This document shows positions 37,403 to 50,265 of a DNA stretch of 64,000 nucleotides, piece by piece. Source of the stretch: Candidatus Latescibacterota bacterium (lineage in GTDB: Bacteria; Latescibacterota; UBA2968; GCA-2709665). Under the pieces are notes generated by a model that worked only from the letters and a program-made list of their open reading frames with translations, made no database searches and was not told where the DNA came from. The first letter of the stretch is position 1; each line of letters opens with the position of its first letter. A program made the translations under genes and the position numbers. The stretch is from contig JAGWBX010000008.1 of NCBI GenBank assembly GCA_021295655.1, forward strand, positions 33,141 to 97,140, written 5' to 3'.

Positions 37403-39067
37403 TCAGGAATCATCGATAGCTCCGGTGTCTGCGCAGGTTCTTCTGTCGGGCAGATCCCCGGCCTCCCGGATCCTTTGCGCGTGTTCGAAAAGCCGCTTGA
37501 ACCGCCGGAGGGTATTCCGCCGCCCCTGGTCGTCGCGGACCTCTACGAAGAGAGGGCCCCGTGTGATCTGGTGCGTGGACCACGCCCAGAGAAAACCGGC
37601 GAAGGAGATCCGACTGCCGAACAATTCCGAAATTTCATGATGGTTGGAAAGCGCGCCCGTCACGGGATCGGTGTCCACCTGGTGGATGTGATACCCCAGA
37701 ATACGCCGGCCCAGGCAGGCATACCAGTCGCCGAGGGGTTGCAGATTATCCAGATCGCCACCGTTGTTCCGTGCGTGGCCCACGTCCAGCAGGGCGCCTA
37801 CCCTCGCTTCCGGCGCATCCGCCATTTCTTGCGCCACGGCCTCGATCCATCTCAGGTACTCATCGATCCGCGTGGCGAATTCCCGGTCCGGCGAATCCGC
37901 CGGCGTATTGACGGGATTGTGGATATTCTCAATTGCGATCCCCACGCCGGCACAAGCCGCCGCCCTGAAGAGGCTCGCGAAGGTTTCCGCGAAGGCCCCG
38001 AAATATCCCGTCGGCTCCGGCTTCCCCGCCTGAACGCGCTCCATCGCGCTGGCGCTCGCCCTGGGTACGTGGACGGTGAGGCTGTCCACCCCCGCCTCCA
38101 TCGCGCAATTCAGGTGCGCCCGGACCGCGTCGACCCCCTCGACGCGTCCTGATCTCAAGTTCAATTTCAGGTCGGGCAAATGATAGGAGAGAAAAAGAGG
38201 ACCTCGATCCCGAAGTTCATCAAGCCCCTCGGCAAGCGTGCGCAATGAAAAATCGAGTTCCGCAGGTCGGATCTCCAGGCAGGAAACGCCGGAACCCAGT
38301 GTCTCCCGGACGGCCGCCACGGGGTCGCCCTGAATCGACCAGCCCACCGGCAGCATTCCACTCGGGAGATCCGCCGGCAGTAGCCGGATCGCTGGCGACC
38401 AGGGGATAAATGTCTCCGTCCATGTCCCCTCTTTCTCGCTCGCGAAGAGGCTGATTCCGGGAAGATCTCCGATCGCCTTGTCCGGATCCAGCCCGCGGAC
38501 CACGGCTTCCACGAAGCCGTTTTCGCGGCGGGTGCGGTGGTAGTGGCTGTGTCCCGCGGCGAAAAGTTCGACACCGTTCTCCGAAAGCCAGCGCATCAGC
38601 CACGCCCGACCCTCCGCGTCCATCCTGTCCAGGGGATAATGGGTGATGACCACCCGGCGTTTCGCGCTTATAAGCCGTACGCTCCGGTCCAGCCACAAAC
38701 GCTCCTCGCCCGGAAGCGACCCCGTGGACGTATCGGGAAGAAGGACCAGAAGGTCGTCGAATACGGCCAACCTTCGTTCGGGCGACGCCAGGGCTCCGAG
38801 CACCGACATCGCGTGTTGACCCCGACGTTCCGCGTTTCCCGGGGTGAAGAGAACCGGCGCCTCCACCCGTTCCAGCGCTTCGAGGCAACGCGAGGCCGAA
38901 CCGGCCGTAGAGAAGGTCGTGATATCTCCCCCCACGGCCAGGAAATCCGGCCTCTCCAGATTCACGCGGTCGACGGCCCACTGGAGCGCCTGGTGGGCCG
39001 CCGTGTCCGGATTGTCCGAAAGGTGGAGGTCCGCCAGCAGGATAAAACGATGGCTGCTATTCGTCAT
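37403..39067 (-). CDS. Metallophosphoesterase fused to a sugar-phosphate-isomerase-like TIM barrel
   Basis: A 554-residue fusion. Residues 1-230 are a calcineurin-like phosphoesterase: FILLADLHLSD (D-x-H), LAVGGDITT (GD), TPGNAERRG where GNHD usually stands, VVITHYPLD, and FAAGHSHYH (GHxH). Residues about 265-530 are an AP-endonuclease/xylose-isomerase-like barrel: LEIRPAELDFS, IAIENIHNPVNT (Glu), ALLDVGHARNN (Asp/His), LGYHIHQVDTD and GPLFVEVRDDQG (Glu). The GNHD change to GNAE removes a usual metal/acid residue. Fusion suggests consecutive handling of a phosphorylated sugar or cyclic compound, which is inference. The ribosome site is weak. Confidence 0.82.
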   Translation of the reverse strand: MTNSSHRFILLADLHLSDNPDTAAHQALQWAVDRVNLERPDFLAVGGDITTFSTAGSASRCLEALERVEAPVLFTPGNAERRGQHAMSVLGALASPERRLAVFDDLLVLLPDTSTGSLPGEERLWLDRSVRLISAKRRVVITHYPLDRMDAEGRAWLMRWLSENGVELFAAGHSHYHRTRRENGFVEAVVRGLDPDKAIGDLPGISLFASEKEGTWTETFIPWSPAIRLLPADLPSGMLPVGWSIQGDPVAAVRETLGSGVSCLEIRPAELDFSLRTLAEGLDELRDRGPLFLSYHLPDLKLNLRSGRVEGVDAVRAHLNCAMEAGVDSLTVHVPRASASAMERVQAGKPEPTGYFGAFAETFASLFRAAACAGVGIAIENIHNPVNTPADSPDREFATRIDEYLRWIEAVAQEMADAPEARVGALLDVGHARNNGGDLDNLQPLGDWYACLGRRILGYHIHQVDTDPVTGALSNHHEISELFGSRISFAGFLWAWSTHQITRGPLFVEVRDDQGRRNTLRRFKRLFEHAQRIREAGDLPDRRTCADTGAIDDS

Positions 39068-39924: not shown

Positions 39925-42042
39925 TTACGAGACCTGCAGATACTCTCGAATCATCCGTTCATATATGCTGACGAAATCCGATCGCCCGTTGTGCAGATTG
40001 TAGAAATAGCACATCGGGTTTGGATTGATTTCGATCACCCGGAATCCCGCGGGCGACCGAATCACATCGATTGCATAGAACCCCAGATCGATCACGCCCG
40101 ATAAGCCCGCGGTCAACCGCGACAGCGCGTCGATCAATTCCGGTGCATCCACCCGCCTTGCAGTTCCGGTTGGACCGTGCAGCGGATTCAGGTCGCGGCA
40201 CGGCGATTCACTGACTTTCTCGTATGCCAGCAGCAATTCATCCCGGGCGGCAACGATCCGATACTCGGGCCCGCTGATGTGCTCCTGAACCAGCGTCAGA
40301 TTGTCCAGGTATCCGCTGTTTTCGAACAAAGTCCGCAAGCGTTTCTTCAGCGCGCGCCGGTCTCCCTCCAGGAAGACGCCCTGGGCCAGAGACCCTGTGT
40401 TCCGCTTGACAACCACGGGATAGGAAAACCGGCGTTCAACGTCCTCAACCACTGCATCGACCGACACATGGGTACGGTAGCGCGAAAACCGTTCGTCCGC
40501 AAATGGATTGAAGACCACCATGGTTTCAGGAACCGGAAGCCCGGCCCGCGCAAACAGCTCGTACTGATATGCCTTGTCTTCCGCAAGACGAGCCGCCACG
40601 TAGTCGTTGAACGGATGCTTGTTACGCAGAAAATAGACCGGCCCGCGTCCTTGCGGCCGGATGCAAACCAGATTTCCGTCTTCCGAAGCCGGTTCGATCC
40701 GAACGTCCAGGTTGGCGCAGGCTTTCGCCAGGCACGCCAGGCTCTCCTTGTGCAGGTCTTCCCCGAATCCGTCCCGCTCGCAAGGCAGACCCAGCGCTTC
40801 GCGCGCCCTGCCGACGAGATGCAGCGATCCCATGATACAGACGGGATTCTCCTCCTGCAACCCCGCGTGTCCGAGCGCCTCCACAATGTCCTTCGCGCAA
40901 CAGGCGGAAAGGCCCGCGGGCAGGCATTGCCGCAACACGTCGACGGCCAGGGCTTTCGGGTGTTCGGACCTCGTCAGGACCACTTTTTTCGCCAAAGGCC
41001 GGATCGCCTCGATTATCCCCCCGGCGTCGTGACCCGCGTTCACTCCCACCACGAACGTCCACCGTTTCGATATTCTACCCAGATCGCCCGCGAGGGCCGC
41101 GGCGGCGGACGGGTTGTGCGCGCCATCCAGCACGACACGGGGCGTTTTCCGGGCCACCTCGAACCTGCCCGGCAGATCGAGTCCGGCCAGGGCCTCATTG
41201 ATCCGGGCATCTGTAAGATCCTTCCCGACAAGGTAGCGCCCGGCCGCAATCGCCAGCCGGGCATTCTTCCGGAATACGGACCCCCGGTCCGACTTCTCCG
41301 GATGCGGGAATCTCTGCGCTGTACAACACCGATCATTACCCGTTTCGCCGCCGATAACGCGCAGGTCCACACCCCGTTCCCTGCACTCGCGACGCAACAG
41401 CGAGAGCACTTCAGGTATCTGGGTGTCAGCGGTGAAGAGCGGGCTTCCGGCACGGGCGATTTCGAGCTTGTCCAGCGCGATCGCTTCCACCGTATCGCCC
41501 AGAACTTCGGTATGATCCAGGTCGATCGACGTGAGGACGGCCACACCGGCGTCCCAGGCATTGGTCGCGTCGTATCGGCCGCCCAGCCCCACTTCGAACA
41601 CACCGAATTCAACGCCGGCGTGTGCAAACATGGTTGTCGCCAGCGCGGTTAACGCCTCAAACCTGGTAAAAGGGCCGTACCCCTCCTCCTCGAATCGGCG
41701 GGTTCGATCATAGAGATCGGAAATCCATTTCGCCCAGTCGTCCTTATCCAGAGTACGGTCGTCGATGCGTATGCGCTCGCGGATTGTGTGCAGATGAGGC
41801 GACGTGTAGACGCCGGTTTGCAGGCCGCATTCGTGCAACAGGGCGGCCAGCACGTTGGCCACCGTACCCTTGCCGTTCGTACCGCCCACAATCACCGTCG
41901 CGAATTCCTTCTGTGGATTTCCCATCCGGCGCAACAGGGCCCGCATCCGGGGCAGGTAGTCTTCAGGCGTACCTGCGGCCGTCCCGTCCCGTTCCCAGTC
42001 CTCCAGGGTATTCAGATATCGCTTCGCGCGTGAGTAGTCCAT
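39925..42042 (-). CDS. Folylpolyglutamate-synthase-like Mur ligase fused to a C-terminal ATP-grasp domain
   Basis: A 705-residue fusion. Residues 1 to about 430 look like FolC: VGGTNGKGTVANVLAALLHE (P-loop), YTSPHLHTIRERI, GRYDATN, and DKLEIARAGSP (in the place of the carbamylated-Lys region), then DGAHNPSAAAAL. Residues about 470-705 are a RimK/D-Ala-ligase-like ATP-grasp: KHPFNDYVAARLAEDKAYQY, YPVVVKRNTGSLAQGV (Lys), LVQEHISGPEYRIV and FRVIEINPNPMCYF (metal-binding Glu/Asn). Cyanophycin synthetase has these two domain types in the opposite order. It may extend a small molecule with amino acids. No separate folC was seen. Starts at ATG 42042; separate from rpmB. Confidence 0.8.
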   Translation of the reverse strand: MDYSRAKRYLNTLEDWERDGTAAGTPEDYLPRMRALLRRMGNPQKEFATVIVGGTNGKGTVANVLAALLHECGLQTGVYTSPHLHTIRERIRIDDRTLDKDDWAKWISDLYDRTRRFEEEGYGPFTRFEALTALATTMFAHAGVEFGVFEVGLGGRYDATNAWDAGVAVLTSIDLDHTEVLGDTVEAIALDKLEIARAGSPLFTADTQIPEVLSLLRRECRERGVDLRVIGGETGNDRCCTAQRFPHPEKSDRGSVFRKNARLAIAAGRYLVGKDLTDARINEALAGLDLPGRFEVARKTPRVVLDGAHNPSAAAALAGDLGRISKRWTFVVGVNAGHDAGGIIEAIRPLAKKVVLTRSEHPKALAVDVLRQCLPAGLSACCAKDIVEALGHAGLQEENPVCIMGSLHLVGRAREALGLPCERDGFGEDLHKESLACLAKACANLDVRIEPASEDGNLVCIRPQGRGPVYFLRNKHPFNDYVAARLAEDKAYQYELFARAGLPVPETMVVFNPFADERFSRYRTHVSVDAVVEDVERRFSYPVVVKRNTGSLAQGVFLEGDRRALKKRLRTLFENSGYLDNLTLVQEHISGPEYRIVAARDELLLAYEKVSESPCRDLNPLHGPTGTARRVDAPELIDALSRLTAGLSGVIDLGFYAIDVIRSPAGFRVIEINPNPMCYFYNLHNGRSDFVSIYERMIREYLQVS

Positions 42043-42713: not shown

Positions 42714-43982
42714 TTACCTCGGACGCGGACCCGTGGTGTTGAAACGAACGAACCACAGTTCGGCGTTCGGAAGGGTTCCGCTGCTGAACACCGCGCAGGG
42801 CTCGCCCGGAATCAGGCTCCCGCTGGCCGGCGTGATGCCGTACAGGAAAAAGGAATTCCTCAGTCCGAATCCCTCAAAGCTTCCCAGGGGGGCCGCGGAC
42901 CATTTGCGGCCGTCATCTCTGCCGCGGTACAGCCGCAGGGCCGGCCCCGACGTACCCGACATCCACAACCGGCCGGGGGTTTCGAAGACCGCGCCGACCC
43001 CCGCCCTTTCTGCGGTTACCTCCTCCCAGCGCCGCGTGACGGGATCGCGCCGGTAGACGACCAGTCGGTTCTTCCCACCCTCGAGGCGGCGTGCAGCCGT
43101 GACGAACAACGCCCCGTTGGCCGCCCGCGAGATCGCCTGCGCAAAGGCGAGATTCCGTTTCCAGGGATTCACCTCGGCGACGACCTCCGCGACGGCTGAC
43201 GCAGGATCTTCAAAAGAAATATAAAGATAGACGATTTGGTTGTAATACGGGCTGCGATAGGCGTTATTGCTCACCACGAGGTGGAAACCGCCGCCGTCGG
43301 GGACGATCAGCGGGTACAGCCACGTCGTCCACGGCTCTTGCGACCGCTGCTCAGGCGCCAAAACGAACGGACCGGACCAGGAGCCGGACTCCAGGTCGAC
43401 CCATGCTGTCTGAAAGGAATAGGTCCCCGGCCTGCCAATGTATCCGAGGATAAGTCTCCCCCCGTCCATGGCCGCCCCGATGTATCCGGCGCGATCCAGT
43501 CCGTCCGGGAGAGCGATCGCGCTGAATCCGTCCGGGTCGCCGCGCCGGCGCTGATGCAGAATCCGGGGGCCGGCGTCACGGCGCGCATGGATGAGAACGA
43601 GGCGCCGCCGTGCGTCCAGCAGGACCATCCCCGGTTGATGGTGGAGACCCTCCCATTCGAAAAAAACCTCCCACCCATCTGCCCTGCTGCGGTAGACAAC
43701 GCCCCTCGCGACATCCGGGTGCGGCCCCCAGCGGCCAACGGTAAAAAAGTGTTCGCCGTCGTACACCAGTTTTGGCGCATTATAGCCCCAATAGGGGCTG
43801 ACTGACGCTTCTCCGCTGTCGATTCGGGTCAGTTCGAAGTCCAATGCGTTTTCTCGCGCCATTGGTGAAAGAACGCCTGCCAGAAGGAAGAACCAGCCTC
43901 CGGAAACCCATCGAAAGATCGGATTTTTCCTGCGTGTTTTGCGGATTTGCAGCCATCTTCCGCTTGACAAAATTCGGCGCAT
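42714..43982 (-). CDS. Predicted exported beta-propeller (sialidase-like BNR) protein
   Basis: A 422-residue protein with an N-terminal hydrophobic segment (GGWFFLLAGVLSPMARENA) that reads as a signal peptide after a basic start. The rest is built of beta-propeller-like blades: YDGEHFFTVGRW, GVVYRSRADGWEVFFEW, GMVLLDARRRLVLIHA, YSFQTAWVDLESGSWSG, LVVYRRDPVTRRWEEV, LRLYRGRDDGRKWSAAPLG. The S-x-D-G-x-x-W-like segments recall BNR repeats of sialidases, but no catalytic residues could be assigned. It starts just inside the rimO promoter region, so the two genes are divergent. Function unknown. Confidence 0.6.
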   Translation of the reverse strand: MRRILSSGRWLQIRKTRRKNPIFRWVSGGWFFLLAGVLSPMARENALDFELTRIDSGEASVSPYWGYNAPKLVYDGEHFFTVGRWGPHPDVARGVVYRSRADGWEVFFEWEGLHHQPGMVLLDARRRLVLIHARRDAGPRILHQRRRGDPDGFSAIALPDGLDRAGYIGAAMDGGRLILGYIGRPGTYSFQTAWVDLESGSWSGPFVLAPEQRSQEPWTTWLYPLIVPDGGGFHLVVSNNAYRSPYYNQIVYLYISFEDPASAVAEVVAEVNPWKRNLAFAQAISRAANGALFVTAARRLEGGKNRLVVYRRDPVTRRWEEVTAERAGVGAVFETPGRLWMSGTSGPALRLYRGRDDGRKWSAAPLGSFEGFGLRNSFFLYGITPASGSLIPGEPCAVFSSGTLPNAELWFVRFNTTGPRPR

Positions 43983-44066: not shown

Positions 44067-45410
44067 ATGCCGTCAGTAAACCTCATAACGCTCGGATGTC
44101 CGAAGAATACCGTCGACTCGGAACGCATGCACCGGCTGCTGGAATGCAACGATTACGACGTGGCCGACGAACCGGATGACGCGGACATCATTGTCGTGAA
44201 CACCTGCGGTTTTATCGAACCGGCCAAGGAGGAGTCCATCGCCACGGCCCTCGAAGCCGCCGACTACAAGGAATCCGGCAATTGCAAGGGCCTGATTCTC
44301 ACCGGGTGTCTGGCCGAACGCTACCGGGACGAACTCGTAGCGGAAATCCCCGAGGCGGACGTGGTCGTCGGCCTGGCCGGCGAACGTGAAATCGTCTCGC
44401 ACTGCGACCGGCTGCTGGGCATTTCGCGTCCCCGGGTCTACCGTGACGAGGGTGACCGTCACCTGCTCACCCCGGGTCACTGGGCCTACCTGCGCATATC
44501 CGACGGCTGCGACCGGACCTGCGCCTTCTGCGCGATTCCCGGAATACGGGGTGCTAACCGCAGCGAATCCATCGAGGTTCTTGTTGCCGAAGCATGGCGC
44601 ATGGCCGCCGGCGGCGTGAAGGAAATCGCGCTGATCGCCCAGGATACTATGCGTTACGGCGCCGACCTCTACGGTCGTCCCCGCCTGGTGGACCTTCTGC
44701 GCGAACTCGTCCGCATCGACGGCCTCGAATGGATCCGCCTGCTCTACACCTACCCCACCGGCTGGCGCGACGACCTGATCGACCTCCTGGCGCGGGAGGA
44801 AAAGCTGTGCGCATACGTGGATATGCCCATCCAGCACGCTTCCAATGCCATGCTCAAAGCGATGAATCGCGGCGCCACGGTGGAAAACACGCGCGCGTTG
44901 ATTCGAAAACTCCGTGACCGCGTACCCGGCCTTGCCCTCCGGTCCTCCGTCATCGCGGGCTTTCCCGGCGAAAGAGAGGAACACGTACAGGAGCTTCTTG
45001 AGTTTATCGAGGAGATCCGATTCAACCGGCTGGTCGGCTTCCTCTACTCGCACGAGGAAGGCACTCGCGCAGGTCTCCTCGAGGACGACATGCCGGAAGA
45101 CGAAAAGCGGGATCGTCTGGACCGAATCCTCAGCCTCCAGGCCGTTATCTCCTCCGAAATCACCGCCGGATACGTTGGACAAAGCCTCCGCGTGTTAATC
45201 GACCGTCCCGCGGACGATCCTTCAAGCGACTATATCGGCCGAACGCGAATGGACGCTCCGGAGATCGATGGCGAAGTGTTTATTTCAGGACAAGCGCGAA
45301 TCGGCGAATTCACCGACGTGGAAATAACCGACTCGCTCGATCACGACCTCATCGGACGGTCGACGGCCGCCCCGCGACTGCTGGATATCGCCGCGCCGGG
45401 GGCCCCATGA
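44067..45410 (+). CDS. rimO: Ribosomal protein uS12 methylthiotransferase RimO
   Basis: A radical-SAM methylthiotransferase that adds a methylthio group to Asp of ribosomal protein S12. The N-terminal MTTase domain has the three cluster cysteines in NLITLGCPKNTVDSE, VNTCGFIEPA and LTGCLAERY. The radical-SAM domain has DGCDRTCAFCAIPGIRG, the CxxxCxxC motif, near residue 155. A C-terminal TRAM domain follows (IDRPADDPSSDYIGRTRMDAPEIDG). Length (447 aa) is normal. It is the first gene of a rightward unit and overlaps folA by four bases (ATGA), so the two are translationally coupled. The promoter is at 43964-43992. Confidence 0.97.
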   Translation: MPSVNLITLGCPKNTVDSERMHRLLECNDYDVADEPDDADIIVVNTCGFIEPAKEESIATALEAADYKESGNCKGLILTGCLAERYRDELVAEIPEADVVVGLAGEREIVSHCDRLLGISRPRVYRDEGDRHLLTPGHWAYLRISDGCDRTCAFCAIPGIRGANRSESIEVLVAEAWRMAAGGVKEIALIAQDTMRYGADLYGRPRLVDLLRELVRIDGLEWIRLLYTYPTGWRDDLIDLLAREEKLCAYVDMPIQHASNAMLKAMNRGATVENTRALIRKLRDRVPGLALRSSVIAGFPGEREEHVQELLEFIEEIRFNRLVGFLYSHEEGTRAGLLEDDMPEDEKRDRLDRILSLQAVISSEITAGYVGQSLRVLIDRPADDPSSDYIGRTRMDAPEIDGEVFISGQARIGEFTDVEITDSLDHDLIGRSTAAPRLLDIAAPGAP

Positions 45411-45886
45411 CCGTCATCGCCGCCATGGCCGACAACCGGGTGATCGGTAACGACAATACCATGCCATGGCACGTTTCCGAAGAACTCCGGCAGTTCAAGA
45501 GAATCACCACCGGCGGCGTTCTCATCATGGGTCGCAAGACCTTTGAGTCCATCGGCTGCAGGCCCCTGCCGAACCGCCCCCACGTCATCGTCAGCCGTTC
45601 ATTTCCGGAAACCGCCGGCATCGACGTCTGCCGCAGTTTCGAAGCGGCGTTCGAAAAAGCCGGATCCTACGGGAAGCCTGTGTTCAGCGCGGGCGGCGCC
45701 GAGATATACCGTCAGTCCATTCCCCTCGCGAATCGAATGTATCTCTCCCGCATCAAAGGAGACTATGACGGCGACACGTTGTTCCCCGATTTCGACGAAA
45801 GCGAATGGCGACTGGCGAAGGAGGAAGAACGCGCCGAATTCACTCTCTACGTCTATGAAAGGCGGTGTAAATGCGGTGAGACGTAA
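45407..45886 (+). CDS. folA: Dihydrofolate reductase
   Basis: A 159-residue dihydrofolate reductase that makes tetrahydrofolate with NADPH. The start MTVIAAMADNRVIGNDNTMPWHVSEEL contains the substrate region W-x-x-x-E. The NADPH-binding segments are VLIMGRKTFESIG and HVIVSRSF, then VFSAGGAEIYRQSIP, the conserved GGxxIY motif. FPDFDESEWRL follows near the end. The usual active-site Asp is represented here by Glu (SEEL), as in several bacterial DHFRs. It overlaps rimO by four bases. thyA follows at 165 bases, so both partners of the thymidylate cycle are adjacent. Confidence 0.96.
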   Translation: MTVIAAMADNRVIGNDNTMPWHVSEELRQFKRITTGGVLIMGRKTFESIGCRPLPNRPHVIVSRSFPETAGIDVCRSFEAAFEKAGSYGKPVFSAGGAEIYRQSIPLANRMYLSRIKGDYDGDTLFPDFDESEWRLAKEEERAEFTLYVYERRCKCGET

Positions 45887-46887: not shown

Positions 46888-46947
46888 CCTCGAGTCCGGA
46901 GTCGAGCTCGTCCAAACGTCAGTCTCCCTTTACCGAGGATGGTTGCC

Positions 46948-49900
46948 ATGTCGGATCCTGCAATCCCCTGGCGTCCCAGGGTCATTCTGCCCGGACGCAG
47001 CTTCCGCCTGCCCGTTCAGGCGAAGGACGAAAACGTCACACTCACGGCGGATCACTTTGAGACGATCGCCACGAGGTGGTCCGATCGGGACGGCGCCGTC
47101 TACCACTATCTGCGGTCTCCAGGCCAGGCCGGCGATTATGCTGTCCGTGCCACACATGGCGGCAGGTCCGCGGAAACGACGATCCGTGTCAGCACCCTGG
47201 ACGACCTGCGCCGGCCGCACGCCTACAACGGCGCGTGGTGGCCCCGCCGATGGCCGTTGGAGAAGAATTTCCGGTCGACAAAGACACGGCAGACGCTGCA
47301 GGAGGAACCCGTATCGGATCGTTTCAACGAGGAAACCGTCGCGTGGTGGTCCTCCCAGTCGGATGAGGTCCTCCGGACTCAGCTTCCCGGCGCGGAACTG
47401 CCCAAGGCCCACTTCGCCAACTGCCACCAGGGTTGTCCCAACTGCGGTACGGCGATTTTCAAATACAGCGGCTTTTATCCCTGGGTGCGCAGCCACCTTC
47501 CGTGTGATTTCAAGTCCGAATGTCCCAACTGCGGTTCGGTCTATCCAAGCAACGACCTGGTGAACGAAGACTATATATCGGGCGAATATCCGGACGACGG
47601 GTACGGCTGTTTCGACGCCGAAGGCCACATCTACCTCTTTGCCGCCACCTATCACCGGGATCAATGCCGTATCTATAGTTCGGGAATCACCGCGCTGACG
47701 AACGCACTCCGTGCGGGCGGGTTCGATGAAGCCCGCGCGAGACAACTCGGACTGCTCCTGCTTCGCTATGCGGAGGAAGAACTCTACCTCGCCTCCGTAC
47801 CCCAGTTCCGCTACGGCCCCTCGAAGGGCGTGGAAGAACCCTGGGACTGGGGCCAGCCGGACTGGGCGGACGAACCCGACCCGGTCCAGGCGTTGCGGGC
47901 GAAGGGGAGCATCCGTTACAGCATCGACACCCCGTATCTGATCGAGAGCCTCGCGCTGGCCTACGACACGGTCTGGCCATTGATGCGCGAAGACCGCGAA
48001 CTCGTCGGGCGGGCGCAGGCCATGGGCCTTTCCGTGCAGTCCCCCGGGGACGCCTGCCAGCTGACGGAAGAGATGCTGGCCGCCCTGCTCCAGGTCACGC
48101 TGGACCGGGGCGCGTCAAGCAACCTTCCGAGAGAGAGCCAGGGTGCGCTCAATATCCTGCGGTGCCTGGACCGCCCGGACGCGCGGGACGTCATGGATTG
48201 GGTCTACGACGAGGGACCGGACACGCTTCGGGTCTTCACCACCAACGATTTCTTCCCGGACGGCACGCCGCAGGAGGCCACGGGAGGTTACAATTCGATC
48301 CACAGTGACGGCCTGTTCGACCTGGAGCATCACCTTCACCATCTGCGCGACCTGCAACCTGAGGCCTACCCGGAGTCCGACTTCCCCTCGCTCTGCGAGG
48401 ATCGCCGGGCCGCGCACGTCCCCCGGGCGCTGCACGAAATCACGATGTGCGGCAAGTCTTACTTCCAGTTCGGGGACGGGTCCGCGCCGGGTTCCGCGGG
48501 CTTCAAGGGAGAGGAAACGATCCGACTGGAAAACGACCTCTTTCACCCGCCGATGGATCCGAACCTCCTGAACCGGGCCGTGGCATTTACGGATGATCCG
48601 CTCGTGCGGGAAATCCGGTCGGCCGTTGAGGACCGGCGGCATCGGGCCCTCGGCCCCACGGTCCACGACGGTGTGGGCATCGCGATCCTCCGCACGCCCG
48701 AAGCGCCCGAGCGGGCTGCTGCCGGCATCGTTTACGGGGATACCCTCCACCACCGTCACCGGGACCTTCTGGACGTGCAACTGTTCGCGTTCGAGCGTCC
48801 CTTTCTGACCGACCTGGGATATCCTCAGTCCTGGGCCAGCATGTCCCCCTGGGAATCCCACTGGGCAACCCATAACACCGTCTGGTCCGACCTGCCTGCG
48901 GGCGAGCCCGTCGCCGCCGGCCGGGGTCGCCTGGTGCGCAGCCTCTTCCTGGACGGACTGCAGGTCCTGGACGTTGAGGCGCACCGTTGGGCGTACGAGG
49001 CGACGCGCGGATGGCAGCGGCTCGGCGTCACGTTCCGACGCCTCATCGCCCTTGTCCGGACCGACGGTGACGGCGTTGCCCTCATCGACCTTTCACGGAT
49101 CACGGGAGGAGGGGATCACTGGCGCGCCTGCCGCGGTCTGGAAGGCGTATTTCAGACGGACAACGCGGGACTCCGGCCGCAAACCGGAACCGTCGCCGGT
49201 TCCCGTATCGAACGCGGACAGACGGGCGACCTGCCGCACCCGGACCATACCGCTCTGGCGTACATGGACGACGTGTCGACCGGGGCGGCGCCTCCAGAAT
49301 TCACGGGGTCCTGGCGTTCGCTGGCCGAACCCGCGGTCCACCTGGATCTCCATCAGGTTAACGTCTCTCCCGGGACCCGCCTTTTCACGGCCCGTGCGGC
49401 ACAGGCGATGGGGACGCCCGACGAGTCCAACTACCTGTATCGTCCCGTCCTCTGGCGGCGGACGCCGCAGGACGATACCACCTGCGTCGATCTCGTCTTC
49501 GAGCCCCGAACCGGCAGACCGACCCTTGCGGAAGCGGTCGCCATTCCCTCGGATGCTCCCGACGCCGCAGGTGTCCGGCTTAGCACCGCGCAAGGCAAAA
49601 CGATCGTGATTTACTGGTCGCCCGACGGGGGACCCGGCGACGTCACGCGCTTCGAAGACGGCGTCACGTTGCACGGCGCACTCGCCACCGAGGTGGACGG
49701 ACGAATATCAACCGTGGGCGCGTCCGCGTTCCACTCCCCAGGGACCTCGATCACAGTCGATCAGCCGCTGCAGACCGGCCGCATTGTCGCGCTAGACCGG
49801 GACGCGTGTTCGATTGACGTGGAAGGCCTGGAGGGCGTCGCCGCCGGGGATCGCGTTACCGTCAATCCCGACGAACGCGCCCATACCTACCGCGTCGAAT

Positions 49901-50265
49901 CCGTCGAATCCGCGGTAGACCCGGTTCTCCGCCTGACGCTGGACGTCACCTCGATCCTCGGTCGGGCCAGGATTGTTGCCGTGCAGGACGGAAAGATCGA
50001 TTTCGGCTTTCACATCCTCGCGAAATCGGGCAACCTGAACGGCACGCGGATTCAGACCGGCGCGAACGACGACTGGGCCGTGATATCGAACGCGAGCAAC
50101 GAGCGTTCCTGGCCGCCCGGCCCCGTGCGCACCACGGTCCAGATCGACCCCAACCGGGGCGACGGGGACCGGCTTCGGAATCTGGCGATCGGGGCCTGGG
50201 CTCAGGTCGTGGACTACGTGGTCGGCGACACGGTCCTCTTTGAGCCGGTCGGATCGGGTGGATGA
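46948..50265 (+). CDS. Heparinase II/III-like polysaccharide lyase family protein
   Basis: A 1105-residue protein. Near residue 150 there is a zinc-ribbon-like cluster, FANCHQGCPNCGTAIF and CPNCGSVYPSND, often found before the alpha-toroid of such lyases. The middle is helical (residues about 250-600). From residue about 590 the Heparinase II/III beta domain is visible: TLHHRHRDLLDVQLFAFERP and LTDLGYPQSWASMS, then WATHNTVWSDL. The H-x-H-x-D and HNT motifs match. The C-terminal 250 residues are beta-rich. No signal peptide is seen. Predicted to cleave an acidic polysaccharide by beta-elimination or to be a related hydrolase. The ATG at 46948 has GAGG upstream. Confidence 0.8.
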   Translation: MSDPAIPWRPRVILPGRSFRLPVQAKDENVTLTADHFETIATRWSDRDGAVYHYLRSPGQAGDYAVRATHGGRSAETTIRVSTLDDLRRPHAYNGAWWPRRWPLEKNFRSTKTRQTLQEEPVSDRFNEETVAWWSSQSDEVLRTQLPGAELPKAHFANCHQGCPNCGTAIFKYSGFYPWVRSHLPCDFKSECPNCGSVYPSNDLVNEDYISGEYPDDGYGCFDAEGHIYLFAATYHRDQCRIYSSGITALTNALRAGGFDEARARQLGLLLLRYAEEELYLASVPQFRYGPSKGVEEPWDWGQPDWADEPDPVQALRAKGSIRYSIDTPYLIESLALAYDTVWPLMREDRELVGRAQAMGLSVQSPGDACQLTEEMLAALLQVTLDRGASSNLPRESQGALNILRCLDRPDARDVMDWVYDEGPDTLRVFTTNDFFPDGTPQEATGGYNSIHSDGLFDLEHHLHHLRDLQPEAYPESDFPSLCEDRRAAHVPRALHEITMCGKSYFQFGDGSAPGSAGFKGEETIRLENDLFHPPMDPNLLNRAVAFTDDPLVREIRSAVEDRRHRALGPTVHDGVGIAILRTPEAPERAAAGIVYGDTLHHRHRDLLDVQLFAFERPFLTDLGYPQSWASMSPWESHWATHNTVWSDLPAGEPVAAGRGRLVRSLFLDGLQVLDVEAHRWAYEATRGWQRLGVTFRRLIALVRTDGDGVALIDLSRITGGGDHWRACRGLEGVFQTDNAGLRPQTGTVAGSRIERGQTGDLPHPDHTALAYMDDVSTGAAPPEFTGSWRSLAEPAVHLDLHQVNVSPGTRLFTARAAQAMGTPDESNYLYRPVLWRRTPQDDTTCVDLVFEPRTGRPTLAEAVAIPSDAPDAAGVRLSTAQGKTIVIYWSPDGGPGDVTRFEDGVTLHGALATEVDGRISTVGASAFHSPGTSITVDQPLQTGRIVALDRDACSIDVEGLEGVAAGDRVTVNPDERAHTYRVESVESAVDPVLRLTLDVTSILGRARIVAVQDGKIDFGFHILAKSGNLNGTRIQTGANDDWAVISNASNERSWPPGPVRTTVQIDPNRGDGDRLRNLAIGAWAQVVDYVVGDTVLFEPVGSGG

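What the first reader, a model, noticed from the sequence alone, without database searches (positions are those of the whole stretch)
39925..42042. FolC-like Mur ligase fused to an ATP-grasp domain in the order opposite to cyanophycin synthetase
Both domains keep catalytic motifs (VGGTNGKGT P-loop and DGAHNPSA; VVVKRNTGS and VIEINPNP). Both classes make amide bonds with ATP and amino acids. Joined, they could extend a product with alternating amino-acid units or tag a folate-like molecule. Cyanophycin synthetase has ATP-grasp first and Mur ligase second. No partner gene is adjacent.
Basis: partly seen in the sequence, partly recalled or inferred. Interest (0 to 1): 0.65.

Follow-up and report, generated by a model that had tools for sequence, protein, structure and literature searches.

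The report
Folate synthase fused to glutamate ligase
One class of uncultured Latescibacterota bacteria makes its only folate-glutamylating enzyme (FolC) as a single protein with a second, RimK-like amino-acid ligase; this real and conserved fusion probably gives folate an unusual tail, and it can be tested directly.

Summary
Window 39925-42042, minus strand, is one 705-aa ORF: an N-terminal FolC (TIGR01499, 299.5 bits against a cut-off of 162.65) and a C-terminal ATP-grasp domain of the RimK superfamily. It is not an assembly join: the in-frame fusion occurs in 40 other genomes of one class of Candidatus Latescibacterota, at 50-85% identity. The C-terminal domain was never found alone. It is absent from other classes of the phylum, and no close relative turned up in about 320 other genomes or in a motif scan of 84,980 species. 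Both domains are under purifying selection. It is the only FolC and the only RimK-like protein in its genome. folP and folK are present, with folA and thyA about 4 kb away. The fused FolC domains form one clade on a long stem, with class-specific changes near the active site. The cyanophycin-like reading is not supported. The best reading is a dihydrofolate/folylpolyglutamate synthase carrying its own second glutamate ligase, which probably adds alpha-linked glutamates to the folate tail, as CofF and MptN do on F420 and methanopterin. Acceptor and linkage are inferred, not shown. This is a new variant of known kinds.

The parts
39925..42042 (-). folC-(RimK-like) fusion gene, 705 aa, single ORF starting with ATG
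   Evidence: full-length relatives
40792..42042 (-). FolC (Mur ligase) domain, aa 1-417
   Evidence: TIGR01499 299.5 bits; Foldseek 2vos, 1w78
40612..40791 (-). aa 418-477: conserved joining segment, predicted as the reduced N-terminal lobe of the ATP-grasp domain rather than a loose linker
   Evidence: invariant residues E422, E428, E433, C437, S453, G456; helix and strands at pLDDT mostly 86-96 after the first 7-10 residues; dN/dS mostly 0.1-0.3
39928..40611 (-). RimK-superfamily ATP-grasp domain, aa 478-705
   Evidence: PF08443; TIGR00768 63.4 bits, below its cut-off; Foldseek ArgX 3vpb and RimK 5zct
41863..41889 (-). P-loop VGGTNGKGT (aa 52-60) of the FolC domain
   Evidence: sequence; G54, T55, G57, K58, G59 conserved
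41104..41127 (-). DGAHNPSA (aa 306-313) of the FolC domain
   Evidence: sequence; D306, A308, H309, N310 conserved
40390..40416 (-). ATP-grasp lysine motif VVVKRNTGS (aa 543-551), K546 aligned with RimK K141
   Evidence: K546 and S551 invariant; alignment to 5zct
40015..40038 (-). ATP-grasp Mg-binding motif VIEINPNP (aa 669-676), E671 and N673, with D659 upstream
   Evidence: D659, E671, N673 invariant; aligned with D248/E260/N262 of RimK
45407..45886 (+). dihydrofolate reductase folA (folate context; not part of the fusion)
   Evidence: PF00186 163 bits
46051..46887 (+). thymidylate synthase thyA (folate context; not part of the fusion)
   Evidence: PF00303 349 bits

Best explanation
The gene encodes the folate glutamylation enzyme of these bacteria with a second ligase built in. 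The FolC domain makes dihydrofolate from dihydropteroate and adds gamma-linked glutamate, using ATP, a carbamylated lysine (K192) and an acyl-phosphate. The C-terminal ATP-grasp domain then activates the free terminal (alpha) carboxylate of the folate tail and ligates further L-glutamate, giving a tail with mixed gamma and alpha linkages. CofF does this to coenzyme F420, MptN to methanopterin, and an activity reported in E. coli extracts does it to folates. Fusion would keep the tail within reach of both sites and fix the order of the steps. Shown here: the fusion, its conservation, selection on both halves, sole-FolC status, and the pathway context. Inferred from homology: both activities. 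Inferred from the fusion and from analogy: that the ATP-grasp acceptor is folate, that the added residue is glutamate, and that the bond is alpha.
For: Single ORF. The same in-frame fusion in 40 of 46 other class genomes; every substantial C-terminal match lies in a fused frame. dN/dS about 0.1-0.25 in both domains across 11 pairs. Only FolC and only RimK-like protein in its genome; folP and folK present; no CofE-type substitute. folA and thyA nearby and conserved in 7-8 loci; moaA-fusion operon in 12. Catalytic residues of both halves invariant. The ATP-grasp half is nearest to glutamate-adding ligases: rimK_fam in 25 of 25 members, MptN in 6, CofF in 4; top folds ArgX (complexed with LysW/Glu) and RimK. 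Precedents: E. coli distal alpha linkages (PMC1971073), MptN and MyfB (PMC8141765), CofF (PMC8498797).
Against: The ATP-grasp half scores 63 bits against TIGR00768 (cut-off 143), so it is not a certified member of any family of known specificity; the wider superfamily also makes D-Ala-D-Ala, LysW adducts and cyanophycin. No substrate-specific residue was identified. The FolC half has class-specific changes (K336 of E. coli is H in all 30 fused proteins; EKAG became DK-x-x) and a long stem, which could mean altered rather than normal folate chemistry. There is no biochemical evidence of alpha-linked folates in these uncultured bacteria.
Confidence: 0.5

Rival explanations
1. Division of labour: the FolC domain has become only a dihydrofolate synthase (first glutamate), and the ATP-grasp domain has taken over tail extension, with glutamate or another amino acid, replacing ordinary gamma-polyglutamylation altogether.
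For: The fused FolC domains form one clade with a 1.29 changes/column stem and score about 300 bits where the unfused FolC of the same class (G021) scores 391, while folP scores are alike (about 300 and 307). Class-invariant change K to H at E. coli position 336 and loss of EKAG beside the carbamylated lysine.
Against: All core catalytic residues are kept. No motif is known that separates DHFS from FPGS (PMC1971073). A long stem may reflect fusion-imposed constraints only.
Confidence: 0.2
2. The ATP-grasp domain works on a different acceptor (a protein such as ribosomal protein S6, or another cofactor such as a molybdopterin-type pterin), and the fusion reflects shared supply of ATP and glutamate or shared regulation.
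For: It is the only RimK-like protein in the genome. In 12 loci the gene directly follows moaA (gaps -1 to 22 bp in most), and in the f2 family a MocA-like cytidylyltransferase is nearby.
Against: No glutamylated molybdopterin is known to me. The moaA neighbourhood is confined to one family, while the fusion spans all fused families. A domain never seen apart from FolC is most simply a partner in the same pathway.
Confidence: 0.2
3. Cyanophycin-synthetase-like polymerase with reversed domain order, making an alternating amino-acid polymer.
For: Same two fold classes. The ATP-grasp half has weak similarity to the CphA ATP-grasp (Foldseek 7wac).
Against: CphA models score 42-45 bits against cut-offs of 850-877. 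The Mur half is FolC, not MurE-like. It is the only FolC of a folate-making genome.
Confidence: 0.03
4. Artefact: sequencing or assembly join of two genes.
For: The genome is a fragmented MAG of 104 contigs.
Against: The same in-frame fusion is found in some 40 assemblies at 50-85% identity, including single-contig genomes G007, G010, G037 and G046.
Confidence: 0.005

Closest known systems
FolC, dihydrofolate synthase / folylpolyglutamate synthase (TIGR01499; 1w78, 1o5z, 2vos)
   Same: Aa 1-417 covers the whole family; P-loop, SPH, carbamyl-lysine K192, DGAHNP kept; sole copy in a folate-making genome
   Different: C-terminal ATP-grasp domain; deep separate clade; K336 (E. coli numbering) replaced by H; DKxx in place of EKAG
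RimK family alpha-L-glutamate ligases (TIGR00768: RimK, ArgX/LysX, MptN, CofF; also MyfB)
   Same: ATP-grasp fold with K546, D659, E671, N673; best sequence and fold matches; the family adds amino acids to terminal carboxylates of proteins and cofactors
   Different: Below the family cut-off (63 against 143 bits); fused to FolC; shortened N-terminal lobe; acceptor unknown
CofF and MptN (alpha-glutamate caps of F420 and methanopterin)
   Same: Proposed chemistry: an ATP-grasp ligase adds an alpha-linked Glu to a cofactor tail already bearing gamma-linked Glu (F420) or to a pterin cofactor
   Different: Stand-alone archaeal enzymes; acceptor here would be folate; only 4-6 of 25 members show detectable similarity to these specific models
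E. coli folylpoly-alpha-glutamate synthesis (Ferone et al. 1986, cited in PMC1971073)
   Different: Known as an activity in extracts; to my knowledge no gene assigned; no sequence to compare
Cyanophycin synthetase CphA (TIGR02068)
   Same: One ATP-grasp and one Mur ligase domain in one chain
   Different: Order reversed, Mur half of another subfamily, scores far below cut-off

Membership tests
FolC (TIGR01499) | Score above the curated cut-off over the full model | tested here: met
   299.5 bits against 162.65, model 1-398 of 400
FolC (TIGR01499) | Catalytic residues: P-loop, Mg ligands S/E/H, carbamylated Lys, DGAHNP | tested here: met
   G54TNGKG, S81, E150, H177, K192, D306, H309, N310 kept; 45 of 71 canonical conserved columns kept
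FolC (TIGR01499) | DK motif (E. coli D335-K336) and EKAG motif, conserved in the canonical FolC compared here (not used by the family model as a pass/fail rule) | tested here: not met
   G337-H338 and DKxx in the fused clade
FolC (TIGR01499) | DHFS and FPGS activity | not testable with these tools
   Sole FolC in a genome with folP and folK, so DHFS activity is expected; no motif separates the two activities
RimK-like ATP-grasp (Pfam PF08443) | Score above gathering cut-off | tested here: met
   31.5 bits whole protein, 34.8 bits domain alone, cut-off 21
RimK family alpha-L-glutamate ligase (TIGR00768) | Score above curated cut-off | tested here: not met
   63.4 bits against 143.4
RimK family alpha-L-glutamate ligase (TIGR00768) | ATP/Mg residues (RimK K141, D248, E260, N262) | tested here: met
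   K546, D659, E671, N673, invariant
RimK family alpha-L-glutamate ligase (TIGR00768) | Forms an alpha-amide bond with glutamate | not testable with these tools
   No assay possible
Cyanophycin synthetase (TIGR02068) | Curated score and ATP-grasp-then-Mur order | tested here: not met
   42.3 bits against 850; order reversed

The most novel reading that the evidence does not exclude
In this class the folate coenzyme itself is different: gamma-polyglutamylation is reduced or lost in the diverged FolC half, and the ATP-grasp half extends the tail through alpha linkages (or with another amino acid). It would then be the first gene product known for alpha-linked folylpolyglutamate synthesis.
Probability: 0.2. 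Interest if true: 0.75.

Novelty: new variant of a known kind. Interest (0 to 1): 0.55.

Why it matters
Folate tail length and linkage affect how folates bind their enzymes and stay in the cell. Alpha-linked folate tails were reported from E. coli in 1986, and I found no assigned gene in the literature I could search. A protein in which evolution has tied an alpha-glutamate-ligase-type domain to FolC, and kept it across a class as the only FolC, gives a concrete gene with which to test that chemistry.

Tried and rejected
Assembly join: rejected by about 40 fused assemblies. Second folC or stand-alone RimK in the genome: none. CofE/FolC2 as hidden dihydrofolate synthase: absent from 63 of 64 phylum genomes, the exception being G023. 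Cyanophycin synthetase: scores far below cut-off. Truncated copies in G029 and G038: both end at contig ends. Weak ATP-grasp matches outside the phylum (at most 47 bits): the two family-scanned (L112, L114) are RLAN/RimK-type proteins of about 490 aa, and none inspected carried a FolC motif. Long FolC frames in G281, G158 and G140: they end at the FolC C terminus and their extra length lies upstream. Plasmids: only the FolC half matched. Papers on a FolC/ATP-grasp fusion: none found. The Li et al. 2003 paper on CofF and MptN was not held.

Full report
OBSERVATION. The gene is a single ATG-started ORF of 705 codons on the minus strand of window 39925-42042. Its first 417 residues are a complete FolC (TIGR01499, 299.5 bits, cut-off 162.65). 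Residues 486-676 match the RimK ATP-grasp family (PF08443, above cut-off). The conserved segment 418-477 between them is modelled as part of the ATP-grasp domain: the C-terminal 286 residues alone fold with mean pLDDT 89.8 and pTM 0.86. The full-length model has pLDDT 82.0 and pTM 0.64, so the relative placement of the halves is not established.

REALITY AND SPREAD. A search of 60 relatives found the same fusion in 40 of the 46 other genomes of the same class (families f1, f2 and f4), at 50-85% identity; one of the 40 (G018) matches only to residue 666. Four are single-contig assemblies. The copies in G029 and G038 stop at contig ends; that in G042 is reported as two overlapping matches within one 755-aa frame. 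G023 and G034 have no FolC match at all. G021 (family f3) has an ordinary 446-residue FolC without the extension. Genomes of the other classes of the phylum have ordinary FolC only. A profile of the C-terminal half found it only in these genomes among 386 searched across the bacterial domain; the rest gave weak generic ATP-grasp matches of at most 47 bits. A scan of 84,980 species with two peptide motifs found 38 loci, all in MAGs labelled Latescibacterota or Handelsmanbacteria, Gemmatimonadota/Gemmatimonadetes (or Gemmatimonas) or unclassified; many are the same records as the class genomes. That scan sees only sequences keeping one of the two motifs. Every substantial C-terminal match lies in a fused frame.

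SELECTION. Between close relatives, pairwise dN/dS is about 0.11-0.26 in the FolC half, 0.10-0.22 in the ATP-grasp half, and mostly below 0.33 in the joining segment (one pair 0.51). Both halves are therefore maintained.

GENOME CONTEXT. This is the only FolC and the only RimK-like ATP-grasp protein in its genome. folP and folK are present as single genes. A CofE-type substitute, which can replace FolC in chlamydiae (PMC1971073), is absent from all but one genome of the phylum. DHFR and thymidylate synthase lie divergently upstream behind rimO, and this arrangement recurs in 7-8 loci. In family f4 the gene follows moaA with gaps of about -1 to 22 bases (89 in one locus) in 12 loci, and is often followed, with little or no gap, by a PLP enzyme of the cystathionine gamma-synthase family.

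THE FOLC HALF IS UNUSUAL. In a maximum-likelihood tree of 33 FolC sequences the 13 fused ones form one clade (support 100/100) on a stem of 1.29 changes per column. Gain of the second domain and a burst of change therefore go together. The unfused FolC of the same class scores 391 bits to the family model where the window's fused one scores about 300, while folP does not differ in the same way. The core catalytic set is intact, but E. coli K336 is histidine in all 30 fused proteins, and the EKAG motif around the carbamylated lysine has become DKxx. This may mean a shift in substrate or in the balance of the two FolC activities; a long stem alone does not prove it.

THE ATP-GRASP HALF. It is nearest to the RimK superfamily by sequence (TIGR00768 hit in 25 of 25 members, but 63 bits against a cut-off of 143; MptN in 6, CofF in 4) and by structure (ArgX with LysW/Glu, E. 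coli RimK, LysX). It keeps the ATP and Mg residues. These relatives mostly add amino acids, often glutamate, to a carboxylate-bearing acceptor. MptN and MyfB do so on one-carbon cofactors (PMC8141765), and CofF caps the gamma-glutamyl tail of F420 with an alpha-glutamate (PMC8498797).

MECHANISM. The most economical reading is that the ATP-grasp half works on the product of the FolC half. Gamma-linked glutamates are added by FolC, and further glutamate is joined through the alpha-carboxylate by the ATP-grasp domain. E. coli folates were reported to carry such distal alpha linkages (Ferone et al. 1986, cited in PMC1971073). To my knowledge the gene responsible has not been named, and searches of the held library found no such assignment; most subscription papers are not in that library. 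The steps that are inferred rather than shown are the folate acceptor, glutamate as donor, and the alpha bond.

VERDICT. The cyanophycin parallel is not supported. I found no description of this architecture in the literature I could search, but each half belongs to a known superfamily, so I rate it a new variant of a known kind.

Noticed in passing
G023 (L148:7900-9087, +): The one class genome with neither FolC nor a confident folP carries the phylum's only CofE-type ligase (PF01996, 190 bits; far below the F420 CofE cut-off). It may be a FolC2-style replacement, or the MAG (86% complete) may simply be incomplete.
   Followed up: partly
L120:181-3054 (-), genome G005: A second, truncated copy of the fusion (about 459 residues; its first residues are identical to those of the full copy L012) runs into a region where the opposite strand encodes a catalase-like ORF (catalase judged by eye); pseudogene, strain variant or assembly chimera.
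   Followed up: partly
window 37403-39067 (-): One ORF joins a calcineurin-like phosphoesterase and a xylose-isomerase-like TIM barrel.
   Followed up: no
window 46939-50265 (+): 1108-aa ORF beside thyA with no Pfam family, conserved in at least five relatives' loci.
   Followed up: no
window 42714-43982 (-): 422-aa ORF with no Pfam or NCBIfam match just upstream of the fusion; similar ORFs in two same-genus loci.
   Followed up: no
L062:5466-6716 (-): 417-aa protein without Pfam or NCBIfam match, directly divergent from the fusion in several f2 genomes (cluster 20).
   Followed up: no
L114:670-3362, L115: Outside the phylum, RLAN/RimK-type ATP-grasp proteins of about 490 aa are followed by a 413-aa ORF that looks by eye like a glutamate-cysteine ligase; an apparent peptide-ligase operon of its own.
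   Followed up: no
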